A stretch of DNA of 34,169 nucleotides, taken from NCBI GenBank assembly GCA_016213775.1, contig JACQZR010000170.1, positions 1-34,169 of the forward strand, read 5' to 3'. Under the pieces are notes generated by a model. The model saw nothing but the letters and a program-made list of their open reading frames with translations, ran no database searches and was not told the origin of the DNA. Numbering within the stretch: the first letter of the stretch is position 1; the number at the start of each line of letters is the position of its first letter. The translations under genes were made by a program, and so were the position numbers. Origin of the DNA: Acidobacteriota bacterium. GTDB lineage: Bacteria > Acidobacteriota > Terriglobia > Bryobacterales > Bryobacteraceae. Below are positions 3,027-30,725 of the stretch, in pieces.

Positions 3027-3746
3027 TTAGCCCGGTGCGGCGGCGGAACCGAGCAATTCGACGACCTCGGCCGTTGACCGAACGCGCCCAAAGACCCAAC
3101 TGAATGCCAGCAAGGCCGATTCGTGCATCTGCTCACTCATCTCGGTGCAGGCATCCTCGGCAATGATCACTCGAAAGCCACGATCGGCAGCCTCGCGGGC
3201 CGTCTGGCTTACGCAAACGGCTGTGGTGAGGCCGCAGACAACCAGGGAGTTGATGCCCATGTTGTGCAGGGTCTGGTCGAGCCGTGTGGAAGCGAGGGCG
3301 CCACTGGATGTCTTGTTGAGCACCATCTCGCCCGGAAGCGGCGCGACGGCGTCGTCGATCTGCCAACTTTCGTCGTTGACCGGTGGGCAGACCGGCGACC
3401 CTAGCAGTTCCATCCCAAGCCGGTCGAAGTCCCTCATCCAATCGGGCAGGTCGCGTCCGTCCGGCACGCAAGTGCCGACCGCAAGGAAGATCACAGGCAG
3501 GCCGTGCGAGCGGAACGCGTTCTGAAGCCGGCGGATGTTGCCGAGCACCTTGGTATGGACTCTCTCGAAGTACTCGTCCGAGGCGCCACTGACCAGCTTG
3601 TCGATGATCTGCGCGCGCGGATAGTCCGGCCGCGTGAACCAGCGCTGAACGTCGACGACAATCAGCGCGGACGTGGCGGGCTCGATCGAGAGAGGAGCCT
3701 GATCTTTAGTGCGGAGAAGTTCTTTCACCTTGTCATGGTCAGTCAT
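3027..3746 (-). CDS. Isochorismatase-family cysteine hydrolase
   Basis: A 239-residue isochorismatase/nicotinamidase-superfamily hydrolase. Members cleave amide, ureido or vinyl-ether bonds through a Cys-Asp-Lys triad. All three are visible: Asp32 (ALIVVDVQ), Lys145 (LNKTSSGAL) and Cys178 (GLTTAVCVSQTA), with the usual cis-peptide context before the cysteine. Length is typical and no signal peptide is present, so it is cytoplasmic. AGGAC lies upstream of the ATG. Its first nine codons and upstream DNA are duplicated at 4664-4690 (see repeats). It lies between the cytochrome and flavin oxidase genes. The true substrate cannot be told from sequence. Confidence 0.93.
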   Translation of the reverse strand: MTDHDKVKELLRTKDQAPLSIEPATSALIVVDVQRWFTRPDYPRAQIIDKLVSGASDEYFERVHTKVLGNIRRLQNAFRSHGLPVIFLAVGTCVPDGRDLPDWMRDFDRLGMELLGSPVCPPVNDESWQIDDAVAPLPGEMVLNKTSSGALASTRLDQTLHNMGINSLVVCGLTTAVCVSQTAREAADRGFRVIIAEDACTEMSEQMHESALLAFSWVFGRVRSTAEVVELLGSAAAPG

Positions 3747-17783: not shown

Positions 17784-17887
17784 TGGCGGATGCTTCCCCG
17801 TGAGTTCCTGTCAGCCGCAGACCGGCCACGGCTCGGAATCGCTCTTGTCGCGAAGCTGAAGTTTCCCCTAAACTGTAGTTTCCTTTG

Positions 17888-20590
17888 ATGAGCTCCTCCG
17901 CTGTCGCGCCGATCCTGACCCCGCACGGCCGTCTGACGCTGGTGGAGTCCGCGGAGGCGGCGCCACTTGATTTCTTGCTTGCCGAGCGGCTGCAGGGCGC
18001 TTTTGGGCGTGGGCCCGGGCATGGGCTTCTGCAACTCGGGGCGAATGAAGTTGGAACGGTGCTCCCTCCCGTATTCTCCTACTGGCGCGATTTCGGGTCT
18101 GCCTATGTGACCGCGCTGTGCATGCACACGGAAACCGATGCGACACCGCGGAAAGTACCGGCGCCGCCAATCGCCGAGTTGGAGCAGTTGGTGATGGCCG
18201 CACCGCCGATCACCGGCGCGGAGTATCTGACCGCGGAAGTTCTGGGCGCGCTCTGGCAGGAGTTGGACGCGGCATTCGGCATCGAATTGGCGGAGTCGAA
18301 GAGCGGAATACAGGAGTTTCTCAAAGCAAGGAACGCGGCGTGGAACCTAGTGGGGCGGGTACACTTCAACCTCGCCGAGAACCGCAAGGATCCGGATGCT
18401 CCCTTCGCGTTCCTGGCCACCTATACGACGCGGTTGACAGCGGGCGCGAAGGCGCAACATCTACCGCTGGGGAAAGCGCTCGGCGAGTATGCGGGGGCGG
18501 CGAACAAGGACCGCCTGCTGTCACTGCTTCTTCCGGTACAGAGAGCGTCCGAGACGTGCCCGTGGCTGAAGAGCCTCGTCGATGGCGGCGAGATTTTTCA
18601 TCCGCTGCGATGGACGCCCGCTGAGGCGATGCAGCTATTGCGAGACGTGCCCCACCTGGAAAGCGCCGGAGTGGTGGTGCGAATGCCCGCGACATGGCAG
18701 GCCAACCGGCCGCCACGCCCCAAAGTGTCCGGAAGGATCGGCGGGAATTCGCCAGCGGGCGTTGGCTTCGAGGCATTGCTCGATTTCCAGATGGAAGTGA
18801 CGCTGGATGGCGAACGACTCACGGCTGAAGAGATCCGTGAGCTGTTGGCGAAATCGGACGGGCTGGCTCAGGTACGGGGCCGTTGGGTGGAAGTGGATGC
18901 CGAACGGCTGCGCCGGATGCTGGAGCATTTTGAGGAGGTGGAGCGGACCGCGGCGGAGCAAGGGCTCGGCTTTCGCGATGCGGCTCGCCTGCTTGCCGGG
19001 GCGGATGTCACGGGGAGCGATGCGGCGGAATGGGATTCGGTGGGATGGTCGGAGGTGGTGGCGGGGCCATGGCTGGCGGAGACGCTGAAGGGCCTGCGCA
19101 GTCCCGAGGGACTGGCCCGAGTGGACCCCGGCGCGGAGTTGAGGGCCACGCTGCGGCCCTACCAGCAAGTGGGAGTGCGCTGGCTGTACCTGGTGGCGAA
19201 ACTGGGACTCGGGGCGTGTCTCGCGGACGATATGGGACTTGGAAAGACCATCCAGGTGCTTTCGCTGCTGCTTGTTCTGAAGAGCCAACGGGGCGGGGAA
19301 TCGCAGCCGAGCCTGCTGGTAGCGCCTGCTTCGTTGCTGGCGAACTGGGCTTCGGAGATCGAGCGCTTTGCTCCGGGTCTGAAGGCGCTGATCGCGCATC
19401 CGTCGGCGCTTCCGGCCACCGCTCTCAAAGCGGGCGCGCCTGAAGGGCTGCGCGATGTGGACCTGGTGATCACCAGCTATGGCTCGCTGCTGCGTGTGCC
19501 ATGGATCGCGGAATCGCGCTGGCACATGGTAGTGATAGACGAAGCACAGGCCATCAAGAACCCCGGGGCCAAGCAAACACAAACCGTGAAGGCACTGCAG
19601 GCGAGCGCGCGATTTGCGCTGACGGGGACCCCGATCGAAAACCGGCTCGGCGATTTGTGGTCGATTTTCGACTTTGTCAATCCGGGGCTGTTGGGGTCGG
19701 CGAAGGAGTTCGGCAAGTTCGTCAAACGGCTCGAGGACAGGCCGCACAATCCATACGGTCCGCTGCGCGAGCTGGTGCGGCCTTATATACTGCGGCGGCT
19801 GAAAACGGATCGGGCGGTAATCGCGGACTTGCCGGACAAGATCGAAGTGAAGGCGTTTTGCCAACTGAGCCGGAAGCAAGCCGCGCTCTACGAACAGTCC
19901 GTGAAGGAGTTGGCTACGCAGTTGGAGGACGCCGAGGGGATCCAGCGCAAGGGCTTGGTGTTGTCGTTCCTGATGCGGTTCAAGCAGATCTGCAACCACC
20001 CGTCACAGTGGCTGGGAGACGGCAGTTGGGGCGAAGACGAGAGCGGCAAATGGGCCCGCTTGCGGGACATCGCGGAAGTGATTGCGGCGAAACAGGAGAA
20101 GATGCTGGTGTTCACGCAGTTTCGGGAAGTGATCGGGCCGCTGGAGAGATTCCTCGGATCGATCTTCGTGCGTCCCGGACTTGTTCTGCATGGGGAGACG
20201 GATGTGAAGAAGCGCAAGGAAATTGTGCGGCGCTTTCAGGATGACGAAGCAGTGGGGTACTTTGTGCTTTCGCTGAAAGCCGGCGGCGCCGGACTCAACC
20301 TGACAGCCGCTTCACACGTGGTGCACTTCGACCGGTGGTGGAACCCGGCGGTGGAGAATCAGGCCACTGACCGCGCGTTTCGCATCGGCCAAACGAAGAA
20401 TGTGCTGGTGCACAAGTTCGTGTGCAGAGGTACTGTGGAAGAAAAGATCGACCAGCTTATTGAATCGAAGCGACAACTGTCCACGGACTTGTTGGAAGGC
20501 GGGGCAGACCTGCTGCTGACGGAGATGAAAGACGAGGACCTGCTCAGGCTGGTGGCGCTCGATCTCGACAAGGCGCTGAAAGAGACGTGA
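17888..20590 (+). CDS. SNF2-family ATPase/helicase with N-terminal DUF3670
   Basis: About 900 residues. The N-terminal ~290 residues are uncharacterised. Residues ~295-380 (FQMEVTLDGERLTAEEIREL, RGRWVEVDAERL) fit the bacterial SNF2-associated DUF3670 region. The motor has Walker A DDMGLGKT (Lys453), the DEAQ box at 551-554, ALTGTPIENRLGDLWSI, and helicase C motifs QATDRAFRIGQTKNVLVHKF. These ATPases translocate on duplex DNA and remodel protein-DNA complexes. ATG 17888 is chosen; TTG 17885 is adjacent. The stop is 18 bp before the SWIM gene, so the two are almost certainly co-transcribed. The pairing is recurrent in bacteria, with an unclear physiological role. Confidence 0.94.
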   Translation: MSSSAVAPILTPHGRLTLVESAEAAPLDFLLAERLQGAFGRGPGHGLLQLGANEVGTVLPPVFSYWRDFGSAYVTALCMHTETDATPRKVPAPPIAELEQLVMAAPPITGAEYLTAEVLGALWQELDAAFGIELAESKSGIQEFLKARNAAWNLVGRVHFNLAENRKDPDAPFAFLATYTTRLTAGAKAQHLPLGKALGEYAGAANKDRLLSLLLPVQRASETCPWLKSLVDGGEIFHPLRWTPAEAMQLLRDVPHLESAGVVVRMPATWQANRPPRPKVSGRIGGNSPAGVGFEALLDFQMEVTLDGERLTAEEIRELLAKSDGLAQVRGRWVEVDAERLRRMLEHFEEVERTAAEQGLGFRDAARLLAGADVTGSDAAEWDSVGWSEVVAGPWLAETLKGLRSPEGLARVDPGAELRATLRPYQQVGVRWLYLVAKLGLGACLADDMGLGKTIQVLSLLLVLKSQRGGESQPSLLVAPASLLANWASEIERFAPGLKALIAHPSALPATALKAGAPEGLRDVDLVITSYGSLLRVPWIAESRWHMVVIDEAQAIKNPGAKQTQTVKALQASARFALTGTPIENRLGDLWSIFDFVNPGLLGSAKEFGKFVKRLEDRPHNPYGPLRELVRPYILRRLKTDRAVIADLPDKIEVKAFCQLSRKQAALYEQSVKELATQLEDAEGIQRKGLVLSFLMRFKQICNHPSQWLGDGSWGEDESGKWARLRDIAEVIAAKQEKMLVFTQFREVIGPLERFLGSIFVRPGLVLHGETDVKKRKEIVRRFQDDEAVGYFVLSLKAGGAGLNLTAASHVVHFDRWWNPAVENQATDRAFRIGQTKNVLVHKFVCRGTVEEKIDQLIESKRQLSTDLLEGGADLLLTEMKDEDLLRLVALDLDKALKET

Positions 20591-20608
20591 GCAAAGGAGA
20601 CGTAAACA

Positions 20609-21427
20609 ATGGACTTCTACGGATGGAGACCCTACGTCAGCGTGGCAGAGCGGCGGCGGAAGGCCTTAAAGGAGATGGAGAAACTCAAAAAGAAAGGTCA
20701 TCCGGTGTCGCCGGTGGTGGTGGATGGCCGGATGATCGCCAAGACTTTCTGGGGGAAGGCATGGTGCGAGAACCTGGAACGCTATAGCGACTATGAGAAC
20801 CGGCTACCGCGTGGCCGGACGTACGTCCGCAACGGTTCGGTGTGCGATCTTCAAATCGCGGCGGGCGAGATCAAAGCGCTGGTCAGCGGCTCCGAGCTTT
20901 ATAAGGTCGCGGTGAAAGTGGTGCCGGTGGCAAAGGCGCGCTGGCAATCTATCTGCGTGGACTGCGCCGGCGCTATCGAGTCGCTTGTTGAACTTCTCCA
21001 AGGCAAGTTGTCCAAGGGCGTCATGGAACGGGTTTGCCGGCCGAAGACCGGCCTGTTCCCGTCCCCAAGCGAGATCAAGCTGTCGTGCAGTTGTCCGGAC
21101 GGGGCGTACATGTGCAAGCATGTGGCGGCGGTGCTTTACGGTATCGGCGCACGGCTGGACCAACAGCCCGAGCTGCTCTTCCTGTTGCACGGTGTGGAGG
21201 CGATCGATCTCATCACCAGCGCGGGGAAGGGAACGCCCATGGCGCAGAAGGCCCCGGCATCCGCCAAAGTTCTTGGGGGCGAAGACCTTTCGGCTCTGTT
21301 TGGTTTGGAGATGGCCCCGGAGGGCAGTCCGGCAAGGCCGAAGCGTCCGAAGGCAGAGATGGTGAAAACCGCGGCGGCAGCGGCTCGTGTGGGTTCTGCT
21401 GGTTCGAAAAGGAAGACCAAGAAATGA
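20609..21427 (+). CDS. SWIM zinc-finger protein
   Basis: 272 residues. The SWIM motif CxC-x(6)-CxH is at Cys160, Cys162, Cys169 and His171 (LSCSCPDGAYMCKHVAAVLYG). SWIM domains bind DNA or proteins through one zinc ion. The N-terminus (FYGWRPYVSVAERRRKALKE, KTFWGKAWCENLERYSDYEN) is the conserved region of bacterial SWIM partners of SNF2 ATPases. The C-terminal ~45 residues are Lys/Ala-rich and end SKRKTKK, probably nucleic-acid binding. GGAGA precedes the ATG. A targeting or cofactor role for the SNF2 protein is inferred from the pairing. Confidence 0.92.
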   Translation: MDFYGWRPYVSVAERRRKALKEMEKLKKKGHPVSPVVVDGRMIAKTFWGKAWCENLERYSDYENRLPRGRTYVRNGSVCDLQIAAGEIKALVSGSELYKVAVKVVPVAKARWQSICVDCAGAIESLVELLQGKLSKGVMERVCRPKTGLFPSPSEIKLSCSCPDGAYMCKHVAAVLYGIGARLDQQPELLFLLHGVEAIDLITSAGKGTPMAQKAPASAKVLGGEDLSALFGLEMAPEGSPARPKRPKAEMVKTAAAAARVGSAGSKRKTKK

Positions 21428-21448
21428 TGTTGGAGATAAGGCGACACA

Positions 21449-22765
21449 TTAGCGGCGACGAACGATGGCTCGGATTCCGTTCTTCGGCCGTAGCGTGATC
21501 GTCGGACGAGGCGTCACAGACTCCTGCAGCAGCTCAAAGCGGAACCGTGGCACTATCGTGGCCAGAACCGCAACACCCTCCAGCAGAGCGAACTGCTCGC
21601 CGATACACTGGCGGACACCTCCGCCGAAGGGAAAGTAACTGAACCGCGGATGCGCGGCTCGCGATTCGCCGTGAAAGCGGCCTGGATCGAACCGTTCGGG
21701 ATCAGGGAAGTATTTCGCCAGCCGTTGTGTGACGTATTGGCAAAGGTAGATTTTGGCGCCACGTTCAATCGCTGCGCCACTGGGCAGACGATCGGTGTCT
21801 AACGCGACGCGCACAAAAATCCAAGTCGGGGGATAGAGCCGCATGGACTCCTCTAATACGCTCCGGGTGTAGGTTAGTTTCGGGATGTCCTCCACGCGAA
21901 GCGTTCGGCCCTGGCACAACGCATTGACCTCGTCCACCACCGCCTGTTCGCACGAAGGATTCCGCGCCAGTAAATAGAAGGTCCAGGAAAGAGCATCTCC
22001 AATGGTCTCGTAGCCCGTGCTCATCAGCGTCAATATCTCATCGCGCACCTGACGCTGAGACATGCGCGAGCCGTCGCCATATTGCAGGGTCTGGAAACGC
22101 GAGGCAAACGTATGGCGCGGAGGGTTCACACGGCCGGTTTCCAGCTCGATCACCGCGTCGATCAATGCCATGGCTCGCCGGTAGCGAAACACGATGGGGA
22201 GCGGCCAGTATTCGGGAAACGGTCCCAACGCAGAGTAGAAGTATTCGATGTAGGCGCGCCGGACGGTGATCGCCTTAGCTAACTGGTCCTGCTCGTCGTG
22301 GAATTCCGTTCCAAACAGCGCGCCGAGGATGATGGATAACGCGAGTCTCTCCATTTCGCTCGCGAGATTCAGTTCACTGCCATCGGTCCAGGAGGCCATT
22401 GCGCGATCAGTTCTATCCATCATCAGATTAAAAAACGCGTCCGCCGGGCGCTGGAATGCCGGCTGCAACATGCGCCGCTGGCGAAGGTGTTCGGCTCCGG
22501 TGCTGGTCTGCATGCCGCTTCCGGAGAGGCGCTTTCCGCTGGGGCTGGTCAGCCGGCTGGTCTTTGTGTAATTCGTTCCGTTATCTACCAGGACATGCTT
22601 AATGTCGGTGGGGTTTGTCAGCAGATAGGTGGGCGCTCCGATGTGCAGTCTGACGACGTCGCCGAATTCCGCCGCGCACCGGGAAAGAAAGCCGAGTTTG
22701 TCCGCGAGAAAGGAGGGTAGATTGCCAAGCAGCGGAATGGCAGGCGGACCGGGGACTACGCTCAT
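21449..22765 (-). CDS. Cytochrome P450
   Basis: A 438-residue soluble-type P450. The oxygen-activation helix reads LMSTGYETIGDALSW, with Glu253/Thr254 in place of the common AGxxT. ExxR is Glu306-Ser-Met-Arg309. The PERF-type motif is PERFDPGRF. The haem loop FPFGGGVRQCIGEQFA has Cys387. The N-terminus starts PGPPAIPLLGNLPSF with no membrane anchor. It would need ferredoxin partners, none of which are nearby. It is the last gene of the minus-strand cluster, and its ATG overlaps the glycosyltransferase stop (ATGA). That ties it to the same pathway. Hydroxylation of the cluster product is inferred; the substrate is unknown. Confidence 0.95.
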   Translation of the reverse strand: MSVVPGPPAIPLLGNLPSFLADKLGFLSRCAAEFGDVVRLHIGAPTYLLTNPTDIKHVLVDNGTNYTKTSRLTSPSGKRLSGSGMQTSTGAEHLRQRRMLQPAFQRPADAFFNLMMDRTDRAMASWTDGSELNLASEMERLALSIILGALFGTEFHDEQDQLAKAITVRRAYIEYFYSALGPFPEYWPLPIVFRYRRAMALIDAVIELETGRVNPPRHTFASRFQTLQYGDGSRMSQRQVRDEILTLMSTGYETIGDALSWTFYLLARNPSCEQAVVDEVNALCQGRTLRVEDIPKLTYTRSVLEESMRLYPPTWIFVRVALDTDRLPSGAAIERGAKIYLCQYVTQRLAKYFPDPERFDPGRFHGESRAAHPRFSYFPFGGGVRQCIGEQFALLEGVAVLATIVPRFRFELLQESVTPRPTITLRPKNGIRAIVRRR

Positions 22766-24015
22766 TCTGAACCGACCTGCGGAACTGTCAGTTGGTGCTG
22801 CCCTTTAGAGGTCCGGGCTTTCCGATCCTGAATCGACTCGATCAGCGCGAGATAATCGGAAACGTAGCGGTTCTCTGAATAGAGTTCCTCATAGGCCCGG
22901 CGGCCCAGCCGTCCCATTTGCGCAGCCAGCCTACTATCTTCGGCGAGAGCTTCGACCGCTTGTTGAAATTCGCGGTCGTTGCGGTAAACGACGCCGGCGC
23001 CGCTCCTTTCGACGGCTTCCGGCGCACCGCCAGCGGTGCTCACAATCGCTGGTGTTCCACAAGCAAACGCCTCGAGGATACAAAGAGGGAACACCTCGGG
23101 GGCTCGTGACGGCAGAATCAAGGCCGTAGCATTCTGATACCAGACAGCCATGTCCGCGTGTTCAATGGCGCCGTGAAACTGGATGGACGGGCAGTTGGCG
23201 TAGCGACGCCGCAGATCATCGAGGATATCCCCAGTGCCCAGAACGTCCAGGTCATATTGCGGCCACTTCGCGAACCATTCCGTAAGCCAGTCAACTCCCT
23301 TCGATGCAGTTACGCGGCCGGAGAATACAAACCGCGGCCGTTGATCCGCAGTCTGCCTCTCTTTTCCATTTCCCTGAACGGAAGAAAAGCTCGGCATCAC
23401 ACGGATGGGACGCCCCAGGTCCGCCTCGGCGTGGCGGCGGGCCGTGTACGCGCTCGGTGAAAGAATCTCGTCGATGTGCCGCAGTTCTTGTTTCAGTAAT
23501 CCGGTATAGCGCCAAAGCTGCGGTGGCACACCCGACTTTACACAGCAACGCAGACACTGCCGTTCATCGCATGCCTTCGACCTGTCCTTCCAGAAGATAT
23601 GCGTGCCACATAGCATCCAGTGCTCGTGAAGCGTGTAGAGATTCACGGGAGCATTACTCATCGAGAGCATGCCCGGTCCGCCGGCGAGAGAAATGTTGTG
23701 GAAGTTCACTACGTCGAAACCGCGATCGAAGATCGCCTTCAACTGCCTGCTCTTCAATCCTGGCTGGCCGGTCTGCTGCGTAATGATCGGCGACAGCGCG
23801 CCGAGATTGCTTTCCAGCCGGTGAACGACGACTCCGTCATTATAGTCGGCTGCTGTTCGCCGCCGCCCACGCCCGATGCGGAAGGCATCGCCGCAATGCA
23901 CGACTTCCACGTGATGTCCGCGAGTGGCCAGGGCGCGCGCGAGGCCCTGTACAAACACGGCATCGCCCCCATAGTGGTAGGGCGGATAATACGTGTTCAC
24001 CATGCAGAATCGCAC
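22762..24015 (-). CDS. Family 4 glycosyltransferase (GT-B)
   Basis: About 417 residues. The N-terminal domain starts VRFCMVNTYYPPYHYGGDAV and contains LYTLHEHWMLCG and a cysteine-rich loop CDERQCLRCC. The C-terminal GT4 donor domain has FVFSGRVTASKGVDWL. The E-x7-E region is APEVFPLCILEAFACGTPAIV, followed by AGGAPEAV. I favour GTG 24015, with GGGGA about 11 nt upstream; ATG 24003 is possible. It probably transfers a nucleotide-sugar residue onto the cluster product or a lipid-linked acceptor. It overlaps the P450 by 4 bp. The 84 bp upstream contains the tandem repeat at the end of the ligase gene. Confidence 0.92.
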   Translation of the reverse strand: MRFCMVNTYYPPYHYGGDAVFVQGLARALATRGHHVEVVHCGDAFRIGRGRRRTAADYNDGVVVHRLESNLGALSPIITQQTGQPGLKSRQLKAIFDRGFDVVNFHNISLAGGPGMLSMSNAPVNLYTLHEHWMLCGTHIFWKDRSKACDERQCLRCCVKSGVPPQLWRYTGLLKQELRHIDEILSPSAYTARRHAEADLGRPIRVMPSFSSVQGNGKERQTADQRPRFVFSGRVTASKGVDWLTEWFAKWPQYDLDVLGTGDILDDLRRRYANCPSIQFHGAIEHADMAVWYQNATALILPSRAPEVFPLCILEAFACGTPAIVSTAGGAPEAVERSGAGVVYRNDREFQQAVEALAEDSRLAAQMGRLGRRAYEELYSENRYVSDYLALIESIQDRKARTSKGQHQLTVPQVGSE

Positions 24016-24082
24016 GTTTTCAGCATTCCCCGAGGTTGAAAATCTCAGGCAATTGTAGCAGAGGCATTCCAAGCGCTGTGTT

Positions 24083-24120
24083 ATTTCAAGCGGAGCGCAT
24101 CATTTTAAGCGGAGCGCATC
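24083..24120. repeat. 19 bp tandem duplication at the end of the AMP-ligase gene
   Basis: ATTTCAAGCGGAGCGCATC (24083-24101) is followed directly by ATTTTAAGCGGAGCGCATC (24102-24120), 18 of 19 identical. On the coding minus strand each copy encodes DALRLK and then a stop: TGA at 24100-24102 for the present end, TAA at 24081-24083 for the other copy. The duplication shifts the frame by one but regenerates a stop at the junction. Confidence 0.9.
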
Positions 24121-25536
24121 AGGGCGAACATCGATCAAGCGCGGGACCTTGTACGGAGCGAGCCGGTTGCGGCAATACGCTGCCAACGCTTCCGGCGCAC
24201 ATGGGATACTGCAATACACAACCGCCTTCGCCGATTCGTTACCTAACCCGTCGTGGAGGGGAATGACAGAGGCCTTCGTAACACTGGGATGGCTGCAGAG
24301 AACCTCTTCCACTTCCGCCGGATTGATCTTGCGACCCGCGTTATTGAGGAACCGCTGGTTTCGTCCGGTCAGGTACAACCGGCCCTGGCTGTCCAAGCGT
24401 CCGAAGTCGCCGGGACGGATCCATCCGCCCGCATCCGGCAGCGCCAGGAGGCGTCCTCCCGTTTCGGGACCTGCGACCCAACTCGCAATCCACGGACTGC
24501 GCACCGCGATCTCCGCGGACTCGTGCGAGATAGAAATCTCGACACGGGGCAGCGGGTGTCCCGCGGAATCGGCCGCCGCTTCGGGATCGGAATCCAGATT
24601 CATGGATACGAACCCTGTCTCGGAGGCGCCATACAGTTGACGCAATCGGATACCGAACCGTCTCAGAACCTTGTCCCATACGTCCCGGTGCAGTGGTGCT
24701 CCTGAGGAGATCGCCAGCCGAAGCGAAGGGAATCTCATTTCGCCAGGAGTCCGTGTGTCGGCCATCACTGAATAAACGAAAGGTGGCGCCGCGAAAGCAG
24801 TGACCTCTTGCTCGGCCAGCAGTCGCAGCGTATTGCGGCGGTCGAAGCATTTCTCCAGAATCAGCGTCGCACCGGAAAAAAGCGCGGCGAGTAATCCGGT
24901 GCTAAAACCCATACCGTGATGGATGGGCGTCACGCAAAGTATGCGATCACCGCCAACGATGCCGGCTGTTCCACAATAGGCGGACGCCATTGCCGCTAAT
25001 GAAGTGTGTGAGCGAACGACACGCTTGGAAATGCCGGTACTCCCGGATGTACGCAGATGAAGAAACGGCAGAGCGGCTGCCGCATGATTTTCCATGCGAG
25101 CCGCGATGCCCTCGACTGCCATGCGCCTCAGACTGGGCAGCCCGAAATCTTCGCGCGAAACTTGCAGAACCCGCATCCCGGGCTTCCTTTCGATCACATC
25201 CCTGCATAAGTCCGCCATGAAATCATCGGCGATGAGCGTCGTGCATGCAGCCGACTCCAGAGCAGCGTGGATTTCCGGACTCGTGAGTTCGGCGCCCAGT
25301 GGTAACACCTGCGCACCAAGCCGCGACAGCGAGAGCAGCGAGATAAGAAAGGGGGCGGAGTTGGGCAGCACCAGCGCCACAGTGTCCGCAGGGCCCATGC
25401 CGAGATCAGAAAGCCCATGCGAAAGGCGCGAGGTCTGGTCGAGCAACTGGCCCCACGTGTGGGTTTCCCCAGCGTGAACCAGCGCCGGCCTTGCGGAATC
25501 ATCAGCGCCCCGGCGTTCGAGAAGTTGGAACAACAT
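24100..25536 (-). CDS. AMP-dependent acyl/aryl-acid ligase (ANL superfamily)
   Basis: 478 residues. It has ANL core motifs A3 RTSGSTGISK (162-171) and A5 YGASETG (302-308). A7 is IRPGDFGRLDSQGRLYLTGR, and the hinge region is NNAGRKINPAEVEEVL. These enzymes adenylate a carboxylic acid and transfer it to a thiol such as an ACP arm or CoA. The protein ends PRLIDVRPDALRLK, about where the A10 loop with its catalytic lysine (xxGK) should follow. That lysine is therefore missing unless the terminal Lys substitutes. The start overlaps the ACP stop by one base (TAATG). This argues strongly that the ACP is its thiol partner. The acid is unknown; no aryl-specific code can be read by eye. Confidence 0.92.
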   Translation of the reverse strand: MLFQLLERRGADDSARPALVHAGETHTWGQLLDQTSRLSHGLSDLGMGPADTVALVLPNSAPFLISLLSLSRLGAQVLPLGAELTSPEIHAALESAACTTLIADDFMADLCRDVIERKPGMRVLQVSREDFGLPSLRRMAVEGIAARMENHAAAALPFLHLRTSGSTGISKRVVRSHTSLAAMASAYCGTAGIVGGDRILCVTPIHHGMGFSTGLLAALFSGATLILEKCFDRRNTLRLLAEQEVTAFAAPPFVYSVMADTRTPGEMRFPSLRLAISSGAPLHRDVWDKVLRRFGIRLRQLYGASETGFVSMNLDSDPEAAADSAGHPLPRVEISISHESAEIAVRSPWIASWVAGPETGGRLLALPDAGGWIRPGDFGRLDSQGRLYLTGRNQRFLNNAGRKINPAEVEEVLCSHPSVTKASVIPLHDGLGNESAKAVVYCSIPCAPEALAAYCRNRLAPYKVPRLIDVRPDALRLK

Positions 25537-25820
25537 TAAGACTTCGCTTGGCGAGCGATCTCTCTTTGGACGGCGCCCGCCAGCGAACCAAGGGACTCGA
25601 AATGTTCGCGCGTGAGAACCCCGTCGTCGAGAATGATGCTGAACTCGTTCTCAATGCGCACGACAAATTCAAGCAGCGCGACGGAATCAAGCGAGAGGCC
25701 TTCGTTTATCAGCGCCACTTCAGAGCGAATCTGGCTGGGGTCCACTTCGTCCCTAACCACGTCGAGCAGTATTTGTTTCAAACGCTCTTCTACCGCCTCG
25801 GTCTCAAGGTTCATAAGCAT
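25536..25820 (-). CDS. Acyl carrier protein
   Basis: 94 residues with the four-helix carrier-protein pattern and the phosphopantetheine site at Ser46 (INEGLSLDSVALLEFV). The usual DSL reads DSV, as in many stand-alone secondary-metabolism carriers. AGGAG repeats lie just upstream, so both ATG 25820 and ATG 25814 are served. It lies between the LpxL-like acyltransferase (12 bp away) and the AMP-ligase (1 bp overlap). It is probably loaded by the ligase and unloaded by the acyltransferase (inference). No phosphopantetheinyl transferase is visible here, so a genomic one would be needed. Confidence 0.93.
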   Translation of the reverse strand: MLMNLETEAVEERLKQILLDVVRDEVDPSQIRSEVALINEGLSLDSVALLEFVVRIENEFSIILDDGVLTREHFESLGSLAGAVQREIARQAKS

Positions 25821-25832
25821 CTCCTATTCTCC

Positions 25833-26759
25833 TCATGCGGGAATCCGCAGCGAGTAACGCGGATGGGCGATATTCGTTGGATGACGCAAGATGTACGCTT
25901 CCAGCCGGGCGGCGTAGGCTTCCACTAACATTCTTGTGTTCCCGGTCCGATCGCGAGGGTCATGCGTAGTTGGAAGCGCTAGCGCCTCCTCGAATACAAG
26001 GCGGAATCGCGGAGCCTTGCCGATGATGGTGAAACATGGAAGGATCGCCGCGCCAGCCATCAGTCCGAGGGAAATGCCCCCGGCGGGGACCGAGTGGTTG
26101 CGGCCGCAAATGGTTACCGGATATCGCCGCTCTCCCGTGCTGCCGTCACCGGATATGCTGACGATCCCGTTTCGACGCAGATGATTGTAGGCCTTTTTCA
26201 TGTACTGAACACTTAGTTCATCGTTCCCAAGGAGATGATCCGAGTCCAGACGGAAGCGGTGCAGATGCCAGCGTTGGAATCTCGCGCCCCACGATGTCGC
26301 GCCCGGAGCGGCGAAGCCGATTCGATAGAGATAATACACCAGATGTGGCTGGGTGCGAAGAAACCAGCGTTCCAGTCTCGGCAGGCCGGTGTGGCAGGTA
26401 AGCAAGACGACTCCCCTGTTCCTCGCCAGTGCCTGCTCTACATGTTGCCAACCAGCCACCTCGAGCCACTCCCGCCAATCGTTGGCATCGTGAAGCGACA
26501 GCACATAGTTGAGATAACGGCGAAATGCCGCATGCACAAAAAGCTCACGGGCATGCTTCGGCATTTCCGGGGAAGGAGTCTGCGGAGGAACCGTCTCGCG
26601 TAACCAGTGGATGGCCTTTCTTCGCTTGCTCCACGAAAGTGCGTACATCGCGTGCGCGGATGCGGTAATCAACTGTACAGCACGCGGCAGGGGTAAAAGA
26701 CGAAGCACTTCCAGCATCACGTAGAACCGCAGTTTGTCAGCAATCTCGAGCAACGTCAT
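25833..26759 (-). CDS. LpxL/HtrB-like acyltransferase
   Basis: 308 residues resembling the lysophospholipid/lipid A acyltransferase group that uses acyl-ACP. An N-terminal amphipathic or membrane-binding part (LRFYVMLEVLRLLPLPRAVQ) is followed by the active region GVVLLTCHTGLPRLERWFL. There His123 and Glu130 are separated by six residues instead of the canonical HX4D/E. Further family features are GIVSISGDGSTGER, VPAGGISLGLMAGAAILPCF and a C-terminal ARLEAYILRHP. It probably works at the inner membrane. Its place beside an ACP suggests transfer of the ACP-bound acyl group to a sugar or amine. It overlaps the radical SAM gene by 23 bp. Confidence 0.82.
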   Translation of the reverse strand: MTLLEIADKLRFYVMLEVLRLLPLPRAVQLITASAHAMYALSWSKRRKAIHWLRETVPPQTPSPEMPKHARELFVHAAFRRYLNYVLSLHDANDWREWLEVAGWQHVEQALARNRGVVLLTCHTGLPRLERWFLRTQPHLVYYLYRIGFAAPGATSWGARFQRWHLHRFRLDSDHLLGNDELSVQYMKKAYNHLRRNGIVSISGDGSTGERRYPVTICGRNHSVPAGGISLGLMAGAAILPCFTIIGKAPRFRLVFEEALALPTTHDPRDRTGNTRMLVEAYAARLEAYILRHPTNIAHPRYSLRIPA

Positions 26760-27945
26760 CCCATCCGCCTAGGATCGACCCGCCAGTGACTTCACAACGC
26801 TGAGCCGGCGATGCAAAAGGTCGTGGCAGCAAACTCTGATGCTGGCATCGGACGCAGCGCACCGGCTCCGGGGCTCGGCCGGAGCTTCGCTTCAAGTGCC
26901 GAACGACTATGCCGGCCATTTGTTCGGTTAGTTCGACATACCATTCGGCGTAAGGGGCGCGGTGGCCGGAATAGAGGGTGCCTGCCGAGGGGCTCCAGAC
27001 CAGCGGAATCGCCGCCACTCCCTCTTCCGCGAGTTCCTGCACCCCTTCCAGAAACCGGCTCTTCGGCTCGATGCCTGCGAGGAATCCGGAAAAGATGCGC
27101 CCACCGTCACCGAAAATCTCAACCGCGGCGCGAAGTGCTTCCCTGTACCGGCCATAACCGATGCGCTCTTCTTTCCCCGGGCAAACGGCGCGGAAATAGG
27201 CAGGGTCGAAACACTCGAGGTTAAGGCCGATGGAGCGCAATCCGAGGCGTTGAAGGCGTTCGAACTGGCGCAGGTCCGGCGGCGGCGTCATGATCGCAGC
27301 ACCGGGCAGTTCCGTCATTCCGGCCGCCTCGTGAATCGCTTCAAGGTAGGCAGCCAGTACTTCCATCTCCTGGTTTCCCGGAAGTATGCCACCCGTGATC
27401 AGGAAATGGCGCGCCGGTCCCTCGCGGAAAGCGGCTGCCATCACCTCGCCAACCTCCGCCGCGCGCTTGCGGATCAACACTTCGTCGTACTGTCGCGGAG
27501 TGAAGTTCATGTTGCAAAATGCGCATTCCTTTTTGTTGGAAAAAGTAATGCAGGCATTCGTATGGCAGACGGAGAGGCAGTCTTCGCCGACCAGTTCGGC
27601 GATAGCCGACATCGGTAGACCAAGTGAGGTCTTGCGCGAATAGAAAGCGGGGCGCTCGATCCAACTGAGCGCGGAAAGCCTCTGGCCGTAGCACTCTACA
27701 AAAAGATCGCCTTCCTCGATCCGGATCAAGTATGGCGACCTTTCGTTGAGACGGACCTGGACGATCGCTCCTCCGGGAAGCCGCAATTCGCTCGTCGCCG
27801 CATAAGTCTTGTGGACATCGAAGTCGTACTCGAACAGATGATGCAGTTGTTCCTTGTACTGGGAGCCCATGCCCGACAATGCCAGGTTGTCGATTCGAAC
27901 GCCGTCTGTCAAAAGGCGAGCTTTCAACAAAATCTCATCCGTCAT
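26737..27945 (-). CDS. Radical SAM enzyme with atypical cysteine spacing
   Basis: 402 residues from ATG 27945 (RBS AGAGGA). The frame is open upstream to 28146, but that part lies inside the methyltransferase gene. A ~110-residue N-terminal domain precedes the cluster motif SVCHTNACITFSNKKECAFC. Its cysteines are 127, 132, 141 and 144, so the spacing is CX4CX8CX2C rather than CX3CX2C. The TIM-barrel part has FLITGGILPGN (GGE-like), PGAAIMTPPPD, GLRSIGLNLECFDP and PLVWSPSAGT. The C-terminus has a further CxxC (RCVRCQHQSLLP) and one more Cys, possibly for an auxiliary cluster or zinc. The reaction is unknown. It overlaps both neighbours, so it belongs to the pathway. Confidence 0.88.
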   Translation of the reverse strand: MTDEILLKARLLTDGVRIDNLALSGMGSQYKEQLHHLFEYDFDVHKTYAATSELRLPGGAIVQVRLNERSPYLIRIEEGDLFVECYGQRLSALSWIERPAFYSRKTSLGLPMSAIAELVGEDCLSVCHTNACITFSNKKECAFCNMNFTPRQYDEVLIRKRAAEVGEVMAAAFREGPARHFLITGGILPGNQEMEVLAAYLEAIHEAAGMTELPGAAIMTPPPDLRQFERLQRLGLRSIGLNLECFDPAYFRAVCPGKEERIGYGRYREALRAAVEIFGDGGRIFSGFLAGIEPKSRFLEGVQELAEEGVAAIPLVWSPSAGTLYSGHRAPYAEWYVELTEQMAGIVVRHLKRSSGRAPEPVRCVRCQHQSLLPRPFASPAQRCEVTGGSILGGWDDVARDC

Positions 27946-28654
27946 GGGAATCCTCTCTGCGTGCGACCACCCGCCAGAAGTACGACTTCGAGATGGGCAG
28001 CCACGAAACAGTCGTACCGCGACGGGCTGGCAATGCGAGACGGAGTTCTTCATGCGCGAGCGACTGGATGGAGTAGCGCCGGTAGAACTGATGCACTTCC
28101 TCCCGCGAGGAAAAGTGGTGGGGCACGCCGCTTTCTCCTTCGCCACCTAAGAGTTCCTTGTACATCCTCGGGTCACAGAAGGTATGCGGTTCGATCATTT
28201 CGCCCTTGCCGTACAAGCGGTTGTCCCGCGAGGGCAGAGTTGCGAAAAATTCCCCTCCGGCGCGCAGCTTTCTCCGCACCAGTTCCACCATAGCGTCCAC
28301 CTCGCGCGCCGTTCCGTGATAGATGGTGTTGAACGCCACCACGGCATCGAAATATCCGTCGGCAAACGGAAGGTCGTTCATCTGGCCCCGGTGCAGTTGC
28401 GCAGTCAGCGCCGCCGCCTGTAATCGCGCGCGGCAAGTCTCCAAGGCGGCTTCGGAATGGTCGAGGCCGTATGTTTCAAAGCCCATTGAGGCGAGCAACA
28501 GAACATGCCGTCCTACACCACACCCCAGGTCGAGGACGCGGTGGATGCTTGCGGATTGTTTCCATCTCGTCGCGAGTTCGAGAACGAGACAGTCCGGAAC
28601 CGACCACAATTCGCGCGCACTGGTCTCCTGCCAGATTTTTTCCCATCCGCTCAC
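27935..28654 (-). CDS. Class I SAM-dependent methyltransferase
   Basis: 239 residues from GTG 28654, which has GGAGG 12 nt upstream; the longer frame to 28882 runs into the divergent gene. SAM motif I is VLDLGCGVGRHVLLLASMG (residues ~40-58). Motif II has the acidic residue in YGLDHSEAALE. LPFADGYFDAVVAFNTIYHG is the post-motif. The C-terminal half (RLYGKGEMIEPHTFCDP, SREEVHQFYRRYSI) resembles small-molecule methyltransferases of unknown substrate. It is the first gene of the minus-strand cluster, overlapping the radical SAM gene by 11 bp. O-, N- or C-methylation cannot be distinguished. Confidence 0.92.
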   Translation of the reverse strand: MSGWEKIWQETSARELWSVPDCLVLELATRWKQSASIHRVLDLGCGVGRHVLLLASMGFETYGLDHSEAALETCRARLQAAALTAQLHRGQMNDLPFADGYFDAVVAFNTIYHGTAREVDAMVELVRRKLRAGGEFFATLPSRDNRLYGKGEMIEPHTFCDPRMYKELLGGEGESGVPHHFSSREEVHQFYRRYSIQSLAHEELRLALPARRGTTVSWLPISKSYFWRVVARREDSHDG

Positions 28655-28673
28655 CGTTAAAGATGCCTCCGTG

Positions 28674-28693
28674 GATGATAGTCTTCTATCATC
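28674..28693. promoter_or_regulatory. Perfect 8 bp palindrome between divergent cluster genes
   Basis: GATGATAG (28674-28681), spacer TCTT, CTATCATC (28686-28693). It lies between the GTG of the methyltransferase (28654) and the preferred GTG of the pyruvyltransferase-like gene (28699). The position fits an operator for divergent control or a hairpin in the 5' end of the plus transcript. No convincing -10/-35 pair was seen in this short gap, so the promoters probably overlap coding sequence. Confidence 0.5.
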
Positions 28694-28698
28694 GCATT

Positions 28699-29493
28699 GT
28701 GTACGCCATTCTGCTTTATCGAGTTCAAAATCTTGGTGACATGATTCAGACTGTGGCGCTGTCCCGCCTGCTGCCGGCCGCTGCCGGCGTGTATCGGCAT
28801 CGCTTGGAGGACGCGCCGGCGAATGCCACGTTCGTGATGAATGGTTTCCTCGATAAGGATTCCCCGCCACCGGGCGGCACAAGCCGCTGCGTTTTCGCGG
28901 GCGTCAGCGGACCACACTTTCGCAGGCGGCAATACCTCGACTGGATGCGCACTTCGCCCTTCCCGATTGGGGCGCGTGATCCGGCGACTATGGAGTTTTT
29001 AATCAAGGCCGGGCTGCCCTCAATCATGGTCGGCTGCGCGACGTTGACCCTGCCCCGGTATGACGGGACGCGGAGCGGTGTGTACTCGGTTGACTACTAT
29101 GGCCCGGGTACACGGCTTAGCCACCGGATATCGAGAGAGCTTTCTGTGGAGCGGCAGTGGAAAGCCGCGCTCGAAGCGCTAGACACCTATCGCAGGGCCG
29201 AGGCTGTATACACATCCCGGCTGCACGTCGCGCTGCCCTGCCTGGCGTTCGGTACGCCGGTGTGGATCGCCAAACCGTCTGGAGCAACATGGCGTCCCAG
29301 CCGCTATTCGCTGCTGGAACAGTTGGAGATCCCCTACGAAACGCTGATCACCGCGGACGTAACTCTTTGCTCAAGCGCTTATCTGCAATTCCTCGAACAG
29401 AGCTTGTCCACATCCATTATCCCCGGCGAACCTAAGATGCCTTCCGTGCCGCCAGACGCCGGCGTGCCGCGCTGGCGATTCCCGTGGCCCTGA
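28699..29493 (+). CDS. Polysaccharide pyruvyl transferase-family protein
   Basis: 264 residues from GTG 28699. The start VYAILLYRVQNLGDMIQTVA matches how the family begins (xNxGDxxQ). Other family marks are FPIGARDPATMEFLIKAGLP, VGCATLTLP and the late TSRLHVALPCLAFGTPVWIA (SRLH motif). These enzymes add pyruvate from PEP as a ketal on sugars; some relatives do other sugar or peptide chemistry. It is shorter than typical members. ATG 28663 and 28675 are in-frame alternatives that would shrink the divergent gap to 8-20 bp. It diverges from the methyltransferase, so it is probably part of the same cluster. Confidence 0.82.
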   Translation: MYAILLYRVQNLGDMIQTVALSRLLPAAAGVYRHRLEDAPANATFVMNGFLDKDSPPPGGTSRCVFAGVSGPHFRRRQYLDWMRTSPFPIGARDPATMEFLIKAGLPSIMVGCATLTLPRYDGTRSGVYSVDYYGPGTRLSHRISRELSVERQWKAALEALDTYRRAEAVYTSRLHVALPCLAFGTPVWIAKPSGATWRPSRYSLLEQLEIPYETLITADVTLCSSAYLQFLEQSLSTSIIPGEPKMPSVPPDAGVPRWRFPWP

Positions 29494-29503
29494 CAGACAG
29501 GCC

Positions 29504-30223
29504 TCAGGACGGCCAAGCGTCCACCTGGCTGGAAAGTTGGATCTGCACAAAGTTTCGCGGCGAGTCCTGCCTCAGAATGTCGGGCACCGAATGGAAGGAA
29601 ACCGGACTGCAGGCGAACCCCGCCATCAGGTTCCGTTTCGGCCGGATACGCGCAGCTTCCGGATGCAGGATGCGAAACTTTCGTTTGTGAAGAACCAGGT
29701 CGCCGCCATCGAAACCCGACTCATCCGCGTCACAAAAATAGATGAGCAGCGTCGCAACGCGCCGCCGGTGATCCAGGTGTATTTTGCGGCGATAGCCAAT
29801 GTAGCCCTGGTGAAGGTCCAGCCTCACGAACAGCTCATGCGGCTGGAGATTGATTTTCCGGATATGCCGCCGTTCCTTGTCCTGGCGGCTCTCCTGGTAC
29901 GGTACATAGACTGCCTTCGAGAGATCGATGATGCAGCGGTGGCGCTGGTAAGCGCGGTGGAACTGTGTCCGGCAATACTCCACAAAGCGCTGCGAGTGCG
30001 CAGTCTCGAAGAACTCCTTCCAGGCCCAGTTTTCCGCGATCAGCCGCTGATATTCGCCGTCGCCCCAATAGTAGGAAAATCCGGAGGGACCAGTGCTTGG
30101 TGGGCACACTGGGAAGCTTCGCTCAAGCTCCCGGTACAGGTCCTCGCGAAGAAACTGCTCCTGTTGAATGAAGTCGAAGGGCTCCGCGTGAACGAATCGC
30201 GGCTCGAATGAAAAAGCGCTCAT
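29504..30223 (-). CDS. 2-oxoglutarate/Fe(II)-dependent oxygenase (prolyl-hydroxylase-like)
   Basis: 239 residues. The iron triad is His149-x-Asp151 (KIHLDHRRRVATLLIYFCDA) and His211 (VSFHSVPDI). Arg223 (PRNFVQIQL) is suited to bind 2-oxoglutarate. The strand between (FDGGDLVLHKRKFRILHPEA) is typical of the P4H-like group. Such enzymes hydroxylate peptides or small molecules. It is convergent with the pyruvyltransferase-like gene, 10 bp apart. It may be a tailoring enzyme for the cluster, though its own promoter and opposite end make that less certain. No signal peptide. Confidence 0.9.
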   Translation of the reverse strand: MSAFSFEPRFVHAEPFDFIQQEQFLREDLYRELERSFPVCPPSTGPSGFSYYWGDGEYQRLIAENWAWKEFFETAHSQRFVEYCRTQFHRAYQRHRCIIDLSKAVYVPYQESRQDKERRHIRKINLQPHELFVRLDLHQGYIGYRRKIHLDHRRRVATLLIYFCDADESGFDGGDLVLHKRKFRILHPEAARIRPKRNLMAGFACSPVSFHSVPDILRQDSPRNFVQIQLSSQVDAWPS

Positions 30224-30425: not shown

Positions 30426-30725
30426 ATGGTGTTTACCAAACGGTTGCGGGATGGGGTGAGGCGCGGGGAGATTACCTGCAGTGTGCGCATCTGGAAGAGT
30501 GCGCGGGTGAAGGTGGGACACCGGTACCGGATGGAAGAGGGGGAAATTGAGATAGATTCGATCGAGCCGATTGGTTTCCTGGATATTACGCCCCAGCTTG
30601 CTCGGGAGTCGGGGTTTCTGGGTGTCATCGACTTATTGAAAGTGGCTAAGCACGGGGCGGGGAACAATATCTACTTAGTCAGGTTCCACTATGTAGCGCC
30701 GAAGGGCCTGCGCAGGCCGCGTTAA
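30426..30725 (+). CDS. Small ASCH-domain-like protein
   Basis: 99 residues. The sequence begins VFTKRLRDGVRRGEITCSVR, then IWKSARVKVGHRYRMEEGEI, IEPIGFLDITPQLARESGF and NNIYLVRFHYV. This fits the ASCH fold (PUA-related beta barrel), whose members bind RNA or modified nucleosides. TAGGA lies a few bases before the ATG. It appears monocistronic. The ~200 bp upstream (30224-30425) show no gene or clear promoter. Confidence 0.78.
   Translation: MVFTKRLRDGVRRGEITCSVRIWKSARVKVGHRYRMEEGEIEIDSIEPIGFLDITPQLARESGFLGVIDLLKVAKHGAGNNIYLVRFHYVAPKGLRRPR

What the first reader, a model, noticed from the sequence alone, without database searches (positions are those of the whole stretch)
21449..30223. Compact PKS/NRPS-free cluster combining ACP, AMP-ligase, LpxL-like acyltransferase, radical SAM, methyltransferase, GT4, P450 and pyruvyltransferase
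Seven minus-strand genes are chained, five of the six junctions being 1-23 bp overlaps or a 12 bp gap. A divergent pyruvyltransferase-like gene and a flanking 2OG oxygenase add two more tailoring activities. The set has a loading module (ligase plus ACP), an acyl-ACP-using transferase in place of a condensing enzyme, a glycosylation/pyruvylation pair and four redox or alkyl tailoring enzymes. I know no characterised pathway with this exact set. My model is an activated acid on the ACP transferred to a sugar or amine acceptor, then glycosylated, pyruvylated, methylated and oxidised. The gene calls are from sequence; the model is inference.
Basis: partly seen in the sequence, partly recalled or inferred. 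Interest (0 to 1): 0.85.

Follow-up and report, generated by a model that had tools for sequence, protein, structure and literature searches.

The report
Rare carrier-protein cluster without PKS/NRPS
A Solibacter-like acidobacterium carries a rare, compact set of enzyme genes that probably loads an acid onto a small carrier protein, hands it to another molecule and then decorates it, without the usual assembly-line enzymes; the product is unknown.

Summary
The gene calls hold; four starts are too long. The cluster is real: MT-rSAM-LpxL-ACP-ligase recurs in the same order in a second Solibacteraceae genome, and with ACP-ligase on the other strand in a MAG labelled Geobacter; a decayed fourth locus keeps MT, rSAM, pyruvyltransferase-like, GT4 and P450. 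The 2OG gene overlaps a pyruvyltransferase-like gene in a lasso-peptide-like locus elsewhere. So the nine genes look like a mosaic of recurrent modules: MT-rSAM, LpxL-ACP-ligase, and a tailoring set. LpxL-ACP-ligase also occurs without MT-rSAM in five more family genomes. Where LpxL sits with ACP and ligase, its catalytic HX4D/E motif reads HX4R (8 of 8 first copies); 11 of 11 copies read in another genus keep HX4E. Best model: the ligase charges the ACP, the HX4R LpxL-fold enzyme moves the acyl group to an acceptor, the CX8CX2C radical SAM enzyme and methyltransferase modify it, and GT4, P450, 2OG and pyruvyltransferase-like proteins tailor it. The logic resembles mitomycin's ACP-channelled start; homology to its enzymes was not tested. 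Product unknown; no assay. New variant of a known kind.

The parts
27935..28654 (-). class I SAM methyltransferase (MT), trimmed start GTG 28654; beside the rSAM in 4 of 4 close loci
   Evidence: Pfam Methyltransf_25 73.6 bits; 68%, 51%, 44% identical in L009, L010, L013; start by alignment
26737..27945 (-). variant radical SAM enzyme (NF045502), CX8CX2C, start ATG 27945
   Evidence: 382 bits to NF045502; 85%, 63% and (135-aa fragment) 55% in L009, L010, L013; the three motif cysteines invariant in 16 of 16 aligned; only NF045502 match in its own genome
25833..26759 (-). LpxL/PatA-fold acyltransferase with HX4R in place of HX4D/E
   Evidence: Pfam Lip_A_acyltrans 36 bits; Foldseek: all 14 matches at E<=0.001 are PatA or LpxM, E 2.6e-11 to 6.1e-10; motif
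25536..25820 (-). acyl carrier protein, LSLDSVALLE phosphopantetheine site
   Evidence: Pfam PP-binding 23.7 bits; 64% and 52% in L009, L010; site identical or nearly so in both
24100..25536 (-). ANL-family acyl-AMP/CoA ligase ending in ...RLK-stop
   Evidence: AMP-binding 198 bits; 48% and 41% in L009, L010 (L010 copy cut by the contig end); C-terminus
22762..24015 (-). GT4 glycosyltransferase (start GTG 24015 by homology; ORF from TTG 24072)
   Evidence: Glyco_trans_1_4 80.7 bits; 57-62% in L013
21449..22765 (-). cytochrome P450
   Evidence: p450 224.5 bits; 64% over its C-terminal 221 aa in L013
28675..29493 (+). polysaccharide-pyruvyltransferase-like protein (PYR), start ATG 28663 or 28675
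   Evidence: PS_pyruv_trans 44.4 bits over residues 149-264 of the ORF; 52-59% in L013; 30% beside 2OG in L111
29504..30223 (-). 2OG-Fe(II) oxygenase
   Evidence: 2OG-FeII_Oxy_3 30.6 bits; 53% in L111, where it overlaps the PYR gene; no match in L009, L010, L013

Best explanation
A small specialised-metabolite cluster built on carrier-protein channelling without a condensing enzyme. Proposed order: (1) the ANL ligase adenylates a carboxylic acid and loads it on the ACP serine (family knowledge; not shown here); (2) the LpxL/PatA-fold enzyme, with an altered HX4R active site, moves the acyl group from the ACP to an amine or hydroxyl acceptor (fold and synteny; inferred); (3) the variant radical SAM enzyme and its partner methyltransferase make the characteristic modification of the acid or the acceptor (their pairing in 4 of 4 loci is shown, the chemistry is not); (4) in this genome GT4, P450, 2OG oxygenase and the pyruvyltransferase-like protein add decorations that are optional to the kind, because no match to any of them lies in the five-gene locus L009.
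For: MT-rSAM-LpxL-ACP-ligase conserved in order and strand in L009/G075 (68, 85, 65, 64, 48% identity), with PdxS/PdxT downstream and a pirin-like gene upstream (by eye), so the unit looks complete at five genes. L010 keeps the five with ACP-ligase on the other strand and adds a CN_hydrolase gene. L013 keeps MT, rSAM fragment, PYR, GT4, P450. LpxL-ACP-ligase also in L089, L090, L091, L045, L046 with other neighbours: 7 of the 9 LpxL-like loci found at E<=1e-12 in 237 family genomes have ACP and ligase beside them. LpxL model matches PatA/LpxM. Overlapping genes.
Against: No assay; substrates unknown. The LpxL-like protein lacks the HX4D/E acid of LpxL and PatA, so it may do something other than acyl transfer. 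The ligases of the window and L009 lack the ...GK... tail that L089 and L090 keep and end ...RLK-stop; that the terminal lysine is the catalytic one is a guess. No transporter, regulator or resistance gene among the nine. The conserved loci are few (window, L009, L010, and the decayed L013); the three besides the window are titled MAGs, and L010 could be a misbinned contig.
Confidence: 0.5

Rival explanations
1. ACP-channelled building as in mitomycin: the acid stays on the ACP while GT4 glycosylates it and the radical SAM enzyme makes a C-C or C-S bond; the LpxL-like protein is the off-loading enzyme at the end rather than an early acyltransferase.
For: Mitomycin uses ligase MitE, ACP MmcB, ACP-dependent glycosyltransferase MitB and, as proposed, radical SAM MitD (passages of PMC8621148 and PMC9570651). 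The top fold hits of the rSAM model are lipoyl synthases, which act on a protein-bound acyl chain. MitM is among the PDB hits of the window MT.
Against: No GT4 match in L009 or L010, so glycosylation is not part of the shared core. The rSAM model is weak (mean pLDDT 57.3, pTM 0.61; TM to lipoyl synthase about 0.4, with ThiH, MiaB, HydE and others close behind). MitM accounts for 2 of 55 generic methyltransferase sequences hit. MitD, MitE, MitB were not compared.
Confidence: 0.2
2. A membrane-lipid route: a special fatty or aryl acid is loaded on the ACP and esterified to a glycolipid or phospholipid by the LpxL-like enzyme, as proposed for aryl polyenes; GT4 and PYR build the headgroup.
For: LpxL and PatA are lipid acyltransferases and the model has their fold; aryl polyene clusters hold ACPs, an acyl-ACP synthetase, a methyltransferase and acyltransferases (passages of PMC8253772). 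L091 has a UDP-glucose dehydrogenase gene upstream of the trio.
Against: No ketosynthase, export or thioesterase gene among the nine; the catalytic motif differs from HX4D/E.
Confidence: 0.2
3. Two neighbouring units that share a region by chance: MT-rSAM-LpxL-ACP-ligase as one pathway, GT4-P450-PYR-2OG as another.
For: L009 has only the first unit; L111 has PYR-2OG in a lasso-peptide-like setting; six family genomes have PYR relatives at 41-44% identity with no other cluster gene in the stretch read.
Against: L013, of another genus (G009, g10), has MT and rSAM together with PYR, GT4 and P450 at 44-64% identity and in a different order; GT4 and P450 overlap and the divergent MT/PYR starts nearly touch.
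Confidence: 0.1

Closest known systems
Mitomycin ACP-channelled start (MitE, MmcB, MitB, MitD)
   Same: discrete ligase plus discrete ACP, a glycosyltransferase, a radical SAM enzyme and methyltransferases, start without PKS/NRPS (passages)
   Different: no LpxL-like protein is named in the passages seen; no AHBA-type gene among the 20 window proteins scanned; GT is not part of the conserved core here; sequence relation to MitE/B/D not tested
Aryl polyene clusters (ApeB, D, E, F, H, J)
   Same: ACP, acyl-ACP synthetase, methyltransferase, acyltransferase in one cluster (passages)
   Different: aryl polyene clusters have ketosynthases, a ketoreductase and dehydratases; none among the nine here; no radical SAM enzyme in the gene table of PMC8253772
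Nit1C (nitrilase, radical SAM, GNAT, AIRS; PMC1199592 section 7)
   Same: radical SAM enzyme of related kin (TIGR04043 match below cut-off); a CN_hydrolase gene sits in the L010 relative
   Different: no GNAT, AIRS or flavin monooxygenase among the nine; 127.5 bits against the 303.7-bit cut-off of TIGR04043
PatA / LpxL-LpxM acyltransferases
   Same: fold and Pfam family
   Different: HX4R instead of HX4D/E; linked to its own ACP and ligase

Membership tests
Lip_A_acyltrans (LpxL/PatA) family | profile match and fold | tested here: met
   Pfam 36 bits over a 22.3 cut-off; Foldseek PatA E 2.6e-11, TM 0.59-0.63 by query and 0.70-0.77 by target for PatA chains (model mean pLDDT 72)
Lip_A_acyltrans (LpxL/PatA) family | HX4D/E catalytic motif (recalled as the family hallmark) | tested here: not met
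   H123 kept, position +5 is R in window, L009, L010 first copy, L089, L090, L091, L045, L046, L093; T in L010 second copy; His absent in L092; E in 11 of 11 rows of genus g114
NF045502 variant radical SAM domain | score above the curated cut-off | tested here: met
   382.2 bits, cut-off 125
MSMEG_0568 radical SAM, TIGR04043 | score above the curated cut-off | tested here: not met
   127.5 bits, cut-off 303.7
Nit1C cluster | neighbouring nitrilase, GNAT and AIRS genes | tested here: not met
   none among the Pfam/NCBIfam matches of the ten proteins at 20609-30223
Mitomycin-type ACP-channelled cluster | ligase, ACP, glycosyltransferase and radical SAM enzyme together, no PKS/NRPS domain | tested here: met
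   mitomycin side from passages
Mitomycin-type ACP-channelled cluster | homology of the individual enzymes to MitE, MmcB, MitB, MitD | not tested
   their sequences were not fetched
Aryl polyene cluster | ketosynthases in the cluster | tested here: not met
   no ketosynthase among the nine proteins
Polysaccharide pyruvyltransferase (PF04230) | profile match over the gathering score | tested here: met
   44.4 bits, cut-off 25.3, but only profile positions 110-273 of 280; no PDB relative by sequence at E<=1
Polysaccharide pyruvyltransferase (PF04230) | pyruvyl ketal on a sugar | not testable with these tools
   needs an assay

The most novel reading that the evidence does not exclude
LpxL(HX4R)-ACP-ligase is an undescribed, recurrent and probably mobile biosynthetic cassette: a stand-alone replacement for the condensation step, in which a lipid-A-type acyltransferase fold with a re-built active site joins an ACP-bound acid to varied acceptors, and to which different lineages attach different tailoring genes (here a CX8CX2C radical SAM enzyme with its own methyltransferase).
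Probability: 0.3. Interest if true: 0.72.

Novelty: new variant of a known kind. Interest (0 to 1): 0.55.

Why it matters
Cluster finders commonly key on ketosynthase or condensation domains (general knowledge). A recurrent ligase-ACP-acyltransferase cassette with a diagnostic HX4R motif would give a search handle for pathways that such rules may miss (not tested here), and an entry to the chemistry of a radical SAM enzyme that has no solved relative detectable by sequence (window protein: single hit, HydG, E 0.21). It is testable with the five genes of L009 or the nine of the window.

Tried and rejected
RiPP reading: PYR-2OG sit in a lasso-peptide-like locus in L111 and the window 2OG protein weakly hits a RiPP oxygenase family (22.2 bits, cut-off 150), so I looked over the ORF list for a short precursor gene; ORFs under 70 aa were not listed, the 99-aa ORF 30426-30725 gave no Pfam hit, and the 78-aa ORF 21213-21449 was only read by eye. 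Not supported, not excluded. tRNA or RNA family as an insertion mark: none. Promoter and terminator scans: numbers near those of shuffles (4 against 3.9; 12 against 9.2, sd 3.4), no conclusion. Plasmid-borne relatives: LpxL none at E<=1e-5; rSAM in 513 records, all under 60% identity, the 20 listed at 26-31% and 17 of them annotated MSMEG_0568 family. The rSAM model was too poor to place its cysteines. A C-terminal CxxC is kept in the five close sequences and in some distant ones only; a second Fe-S cluster is possible but not argued. The tree of 22 LpxL-like rows puts the window/L009/L010 copies and the L089-L091/L045/L046/L093 copies in two separate supported groups whose relation to the HX4E group is not resolved (85/64), so HX4R may be ancestral or have arisen twice. 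Literature: ten searches; no described cluster with this set was in the titles and abstracts listed, but searches listed only 5 of 1,384 and 8 of 1,048 papers, and the library holds only open-licence papers.
Full report
Setting. The window is contig 81 of an 11-Mb, 314-contig genome (98.5% complete, 4.6% contamination). Its close relative L009 is titled a 'Candidatus Solibacter usitatus' MAG, and the tree tool labels that locus Solibacteraceae, Acidobacteriota. The flanks look unrelated: a SNF2 helicase and a SWIM-domain protein at 17885-21427, and from about 30800 an ORF that looks like a carboxypeptidase-regulatory/TonB-type protein (read by eye, not tested).

Gene calls. The rSAM protein is a strong member of NCBIfam NF045502 'variant_rSAM' (382 bits, cut-off 125) and below the cut-off of TIGR04043, the MSMEG_0568 family (127.5 bits, cut-off 303.7). 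Its cluster cysteines are C131-x8-C140-x2-C143 (numbers, in which residue 1 follows the ATG), kept in 16 of 16 aligned homologues, with a longer gap in some. C122 is kept in the five sequences; the neighbouring C126 is not (serine in L010). It is the only NF045502 match in its own genome; PYR likewise has no second copy there at E<=1e-3.

Conservation. tblastn of the window proteins on the five loci that the search for related loci returned: L009 has MT, rSAM, LpxL, ACP, ligase in the same order and strand, and no match of GT4, P450 or 2OG at E<=1e-3; its neighbours are a pirin-like gene on one side (by eye) and PdxS/PdxT on the other. L010, a 6.5-kb contig of a MAG labelled Geobacter, has MT-rSAM-LpxL plus a second LpxL copy with one stop, with ACP-ligase (ligase cut by the contig end) and a CN_hydrolase gene on the other strand. 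L013, an acidobacterial MAG, has MT (with a stop in frame), an N-terminal rSAM fragment with stops, PYR on the opposite strand in two pieces, GT4 in two frames and the C-terminal half of P450, next to a transposase-like end (by eye): a decayed relative, in whose genome no LpxL-like gene was found at E<=1e-3. L011 and L012 (Firmicutes MAGs) have only a 35-37% identical rSAM after an Lrp/AsnC-type regulator (Pfam for L011; L012's gene is its blast relative). So of the four close loci (window, L009, L010, L013) MT-rSAM are together in 4, LpxL-ACP-ligase with them in 3, PYR-GT4-P450 in 2, 2OG in 1.

Rarity. rSAM: 7 of 200 family genomes match at E<=1e-3, of which 3 (own, G075, and the G009 fragment) are at 55% identity or more; 113 of 396 phylum genomes match, the own genome included, but no other above 109 bits; 1 of 282 in the phylum of the L010 genome, and 2 of 10 in the class of the L011 genome, at E<=1e-45, all three being genomes already known. 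LpxL: 8 of 237 family genomes at E<=1e-12 and 13 of 396 phylum genomes at E<=1e-18, the own genome and 12 of one genus, g114. The genome-contig scan used exact peptide patterns and would miss distant relatives.

Control for the neighbourhood. Of 26 loci with distant rSAM homologues, none has LpxL, ACP, ligase, GT4, P450, PYR or 2OG matches at E<=1e-4 and one has a short methyltransferase match. These 26 are the two Firmicutes loci, four of the family search and the 20 best other places of the phylum search; 112 other phylum genomes had a match, so most were not examined, and many contigs are short.

The trio on its own. The nine LpxL-like places were examined (window, L009/L014, L089, L090, L091, L092, L093, L045, L046). 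Seven have ACP and ligase beside LpxL in the same order: the window, G075, G137, G082, G034, G103, G094 (for L045 the LpxL was seen by profile only, and its ACP match is 29 aa); the two places of G033 showed none. Around the trio the neighbours differ: a class V aminotransferase upstream in L089, an O-methyltransferase in L046, a UDP-glucose dehydrogenase in L091; the ALAD and RecA genes downstream of L089 and L091 look like housekeeping. The L091 ligase frame stops early.

Active site. On a profile alignment of 22 LpxL-like proteins, the residue five after the catalytic-position histidine is arginine in 9, threonine in 1 (L010's second copy), glutamate in 11 (all of genus g114; the twelfth g114 match had no locus and was not read), and one protein (L092) lacks the histidine. 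The 8 first copies beside ACP and ligase all have arginine; L093 has it without a detected ACP or ligase. A downstream aspartate (D205 in the window) is kept in 21 of 22. That HX4D/E is the family hallmark is recalled; the PDB title 'LpxM with catalytic residue substitution (E127A)' agrees. The tree does not tell whether HX4R arose once or twice.

Ligase. Its best PDB relatives are FadD13, oxalate-CoA ligase and aryl-CoA ligases, which does not fix the substrate. The window and L009 proteins end ...RLK-stop, without the tail that L089 and L090 keep (...GLGKNPKEW...AAGKQPKEW).

Tailoring set. PYR matches in 10 of 236 family genomes at E<=1e-8: the own genome, the G009 relic, six with 41-44% identity (L105-L110), G602 and G156; in L105-L110 and in the G156 stretch (L113) no other cluster protein matched. 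2OG matches in 3 of 230 family genomes; in G602 (L111) it overlaps a PYR gene (2OG 53%, PYR 30% identical) within 4 kb of a lasso-cyclase-like protein (94 bits, cut-off 525), a PqqD-type protein (65.5 bits Pfam) and an HPr-kinase-like protein. The third, in G034 (L112), has stops in frame in one piece and no PYR match.

Mechanism. Shown: gene content, overlaps, conserved pairing, fold family of LpxL, altered motif. From family knowledge: ANL ligase charges an ACP serine; P450, 2OG oxygenase, GT4 and methyltransferase decorate. Inferred: ACP-to-acceptor transfer by LpxL; rSAM and MT acting on the acid or acceptor. The closest logic in print that I saw is mitomycin's (passages of PMC8621148 and PMC9570651) and, for ACP plus acyltransferase, aryl polyenes (passages of PMC8253772); for the rSAM kin, Nit1C (PMC1199592, passages and section 7).

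Verdict. A real, rare, mosaic cluster of a known general kind (carrier-protein channelling without PKS/NRPS), with an unusual combination and an HX4R acyltransferase cassette that my searches did not find described. Product unknown.

Noticed in passing
L089, L090, L091, L045, L046: LpxL(HX4R)-ACP-ligase trio without a radical SAM match, with different neighbours (class V aminotransferase in L089, UDP-glucose dehydrogenase in L091, O-methyltransferase in L046); may be an undescribed cassette of the family.
   Followed up: partly
L111:1-7409: Lasso-peptide-like locus (cyclase-like, PqqD, HPr-kinase-like) with two 2OG oxygenases, a luciferase-like monooxygenase, a pyruvyltransferase-like protein and a GT17-type glycosyltransferase.
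   Followed up: partly
L013:1-3400: Decayed cluster: fragments of MT, rSAM, PYR, GT4 and P450 beside a transposase-like end (the last by eye).
   Followed up: partly
L010:1359-2321: CN_hydrolase gene (N-carbamoylputrescine-amidase-like, 73.9 bits, cut-off 410) between the ACP-ligase and MT-rSAM halves of the relative.
   Followed up: no
L092:7711-8742: LpxL-like protein that lacks the catalytic-position histidine as well.
   Followed up: no
window 733-2187 and 3027-3746: Berberine-bridge-type FAD oxidase and isochorismatase-family hydrolase genes, distant from the cluster.
   Followed up: no
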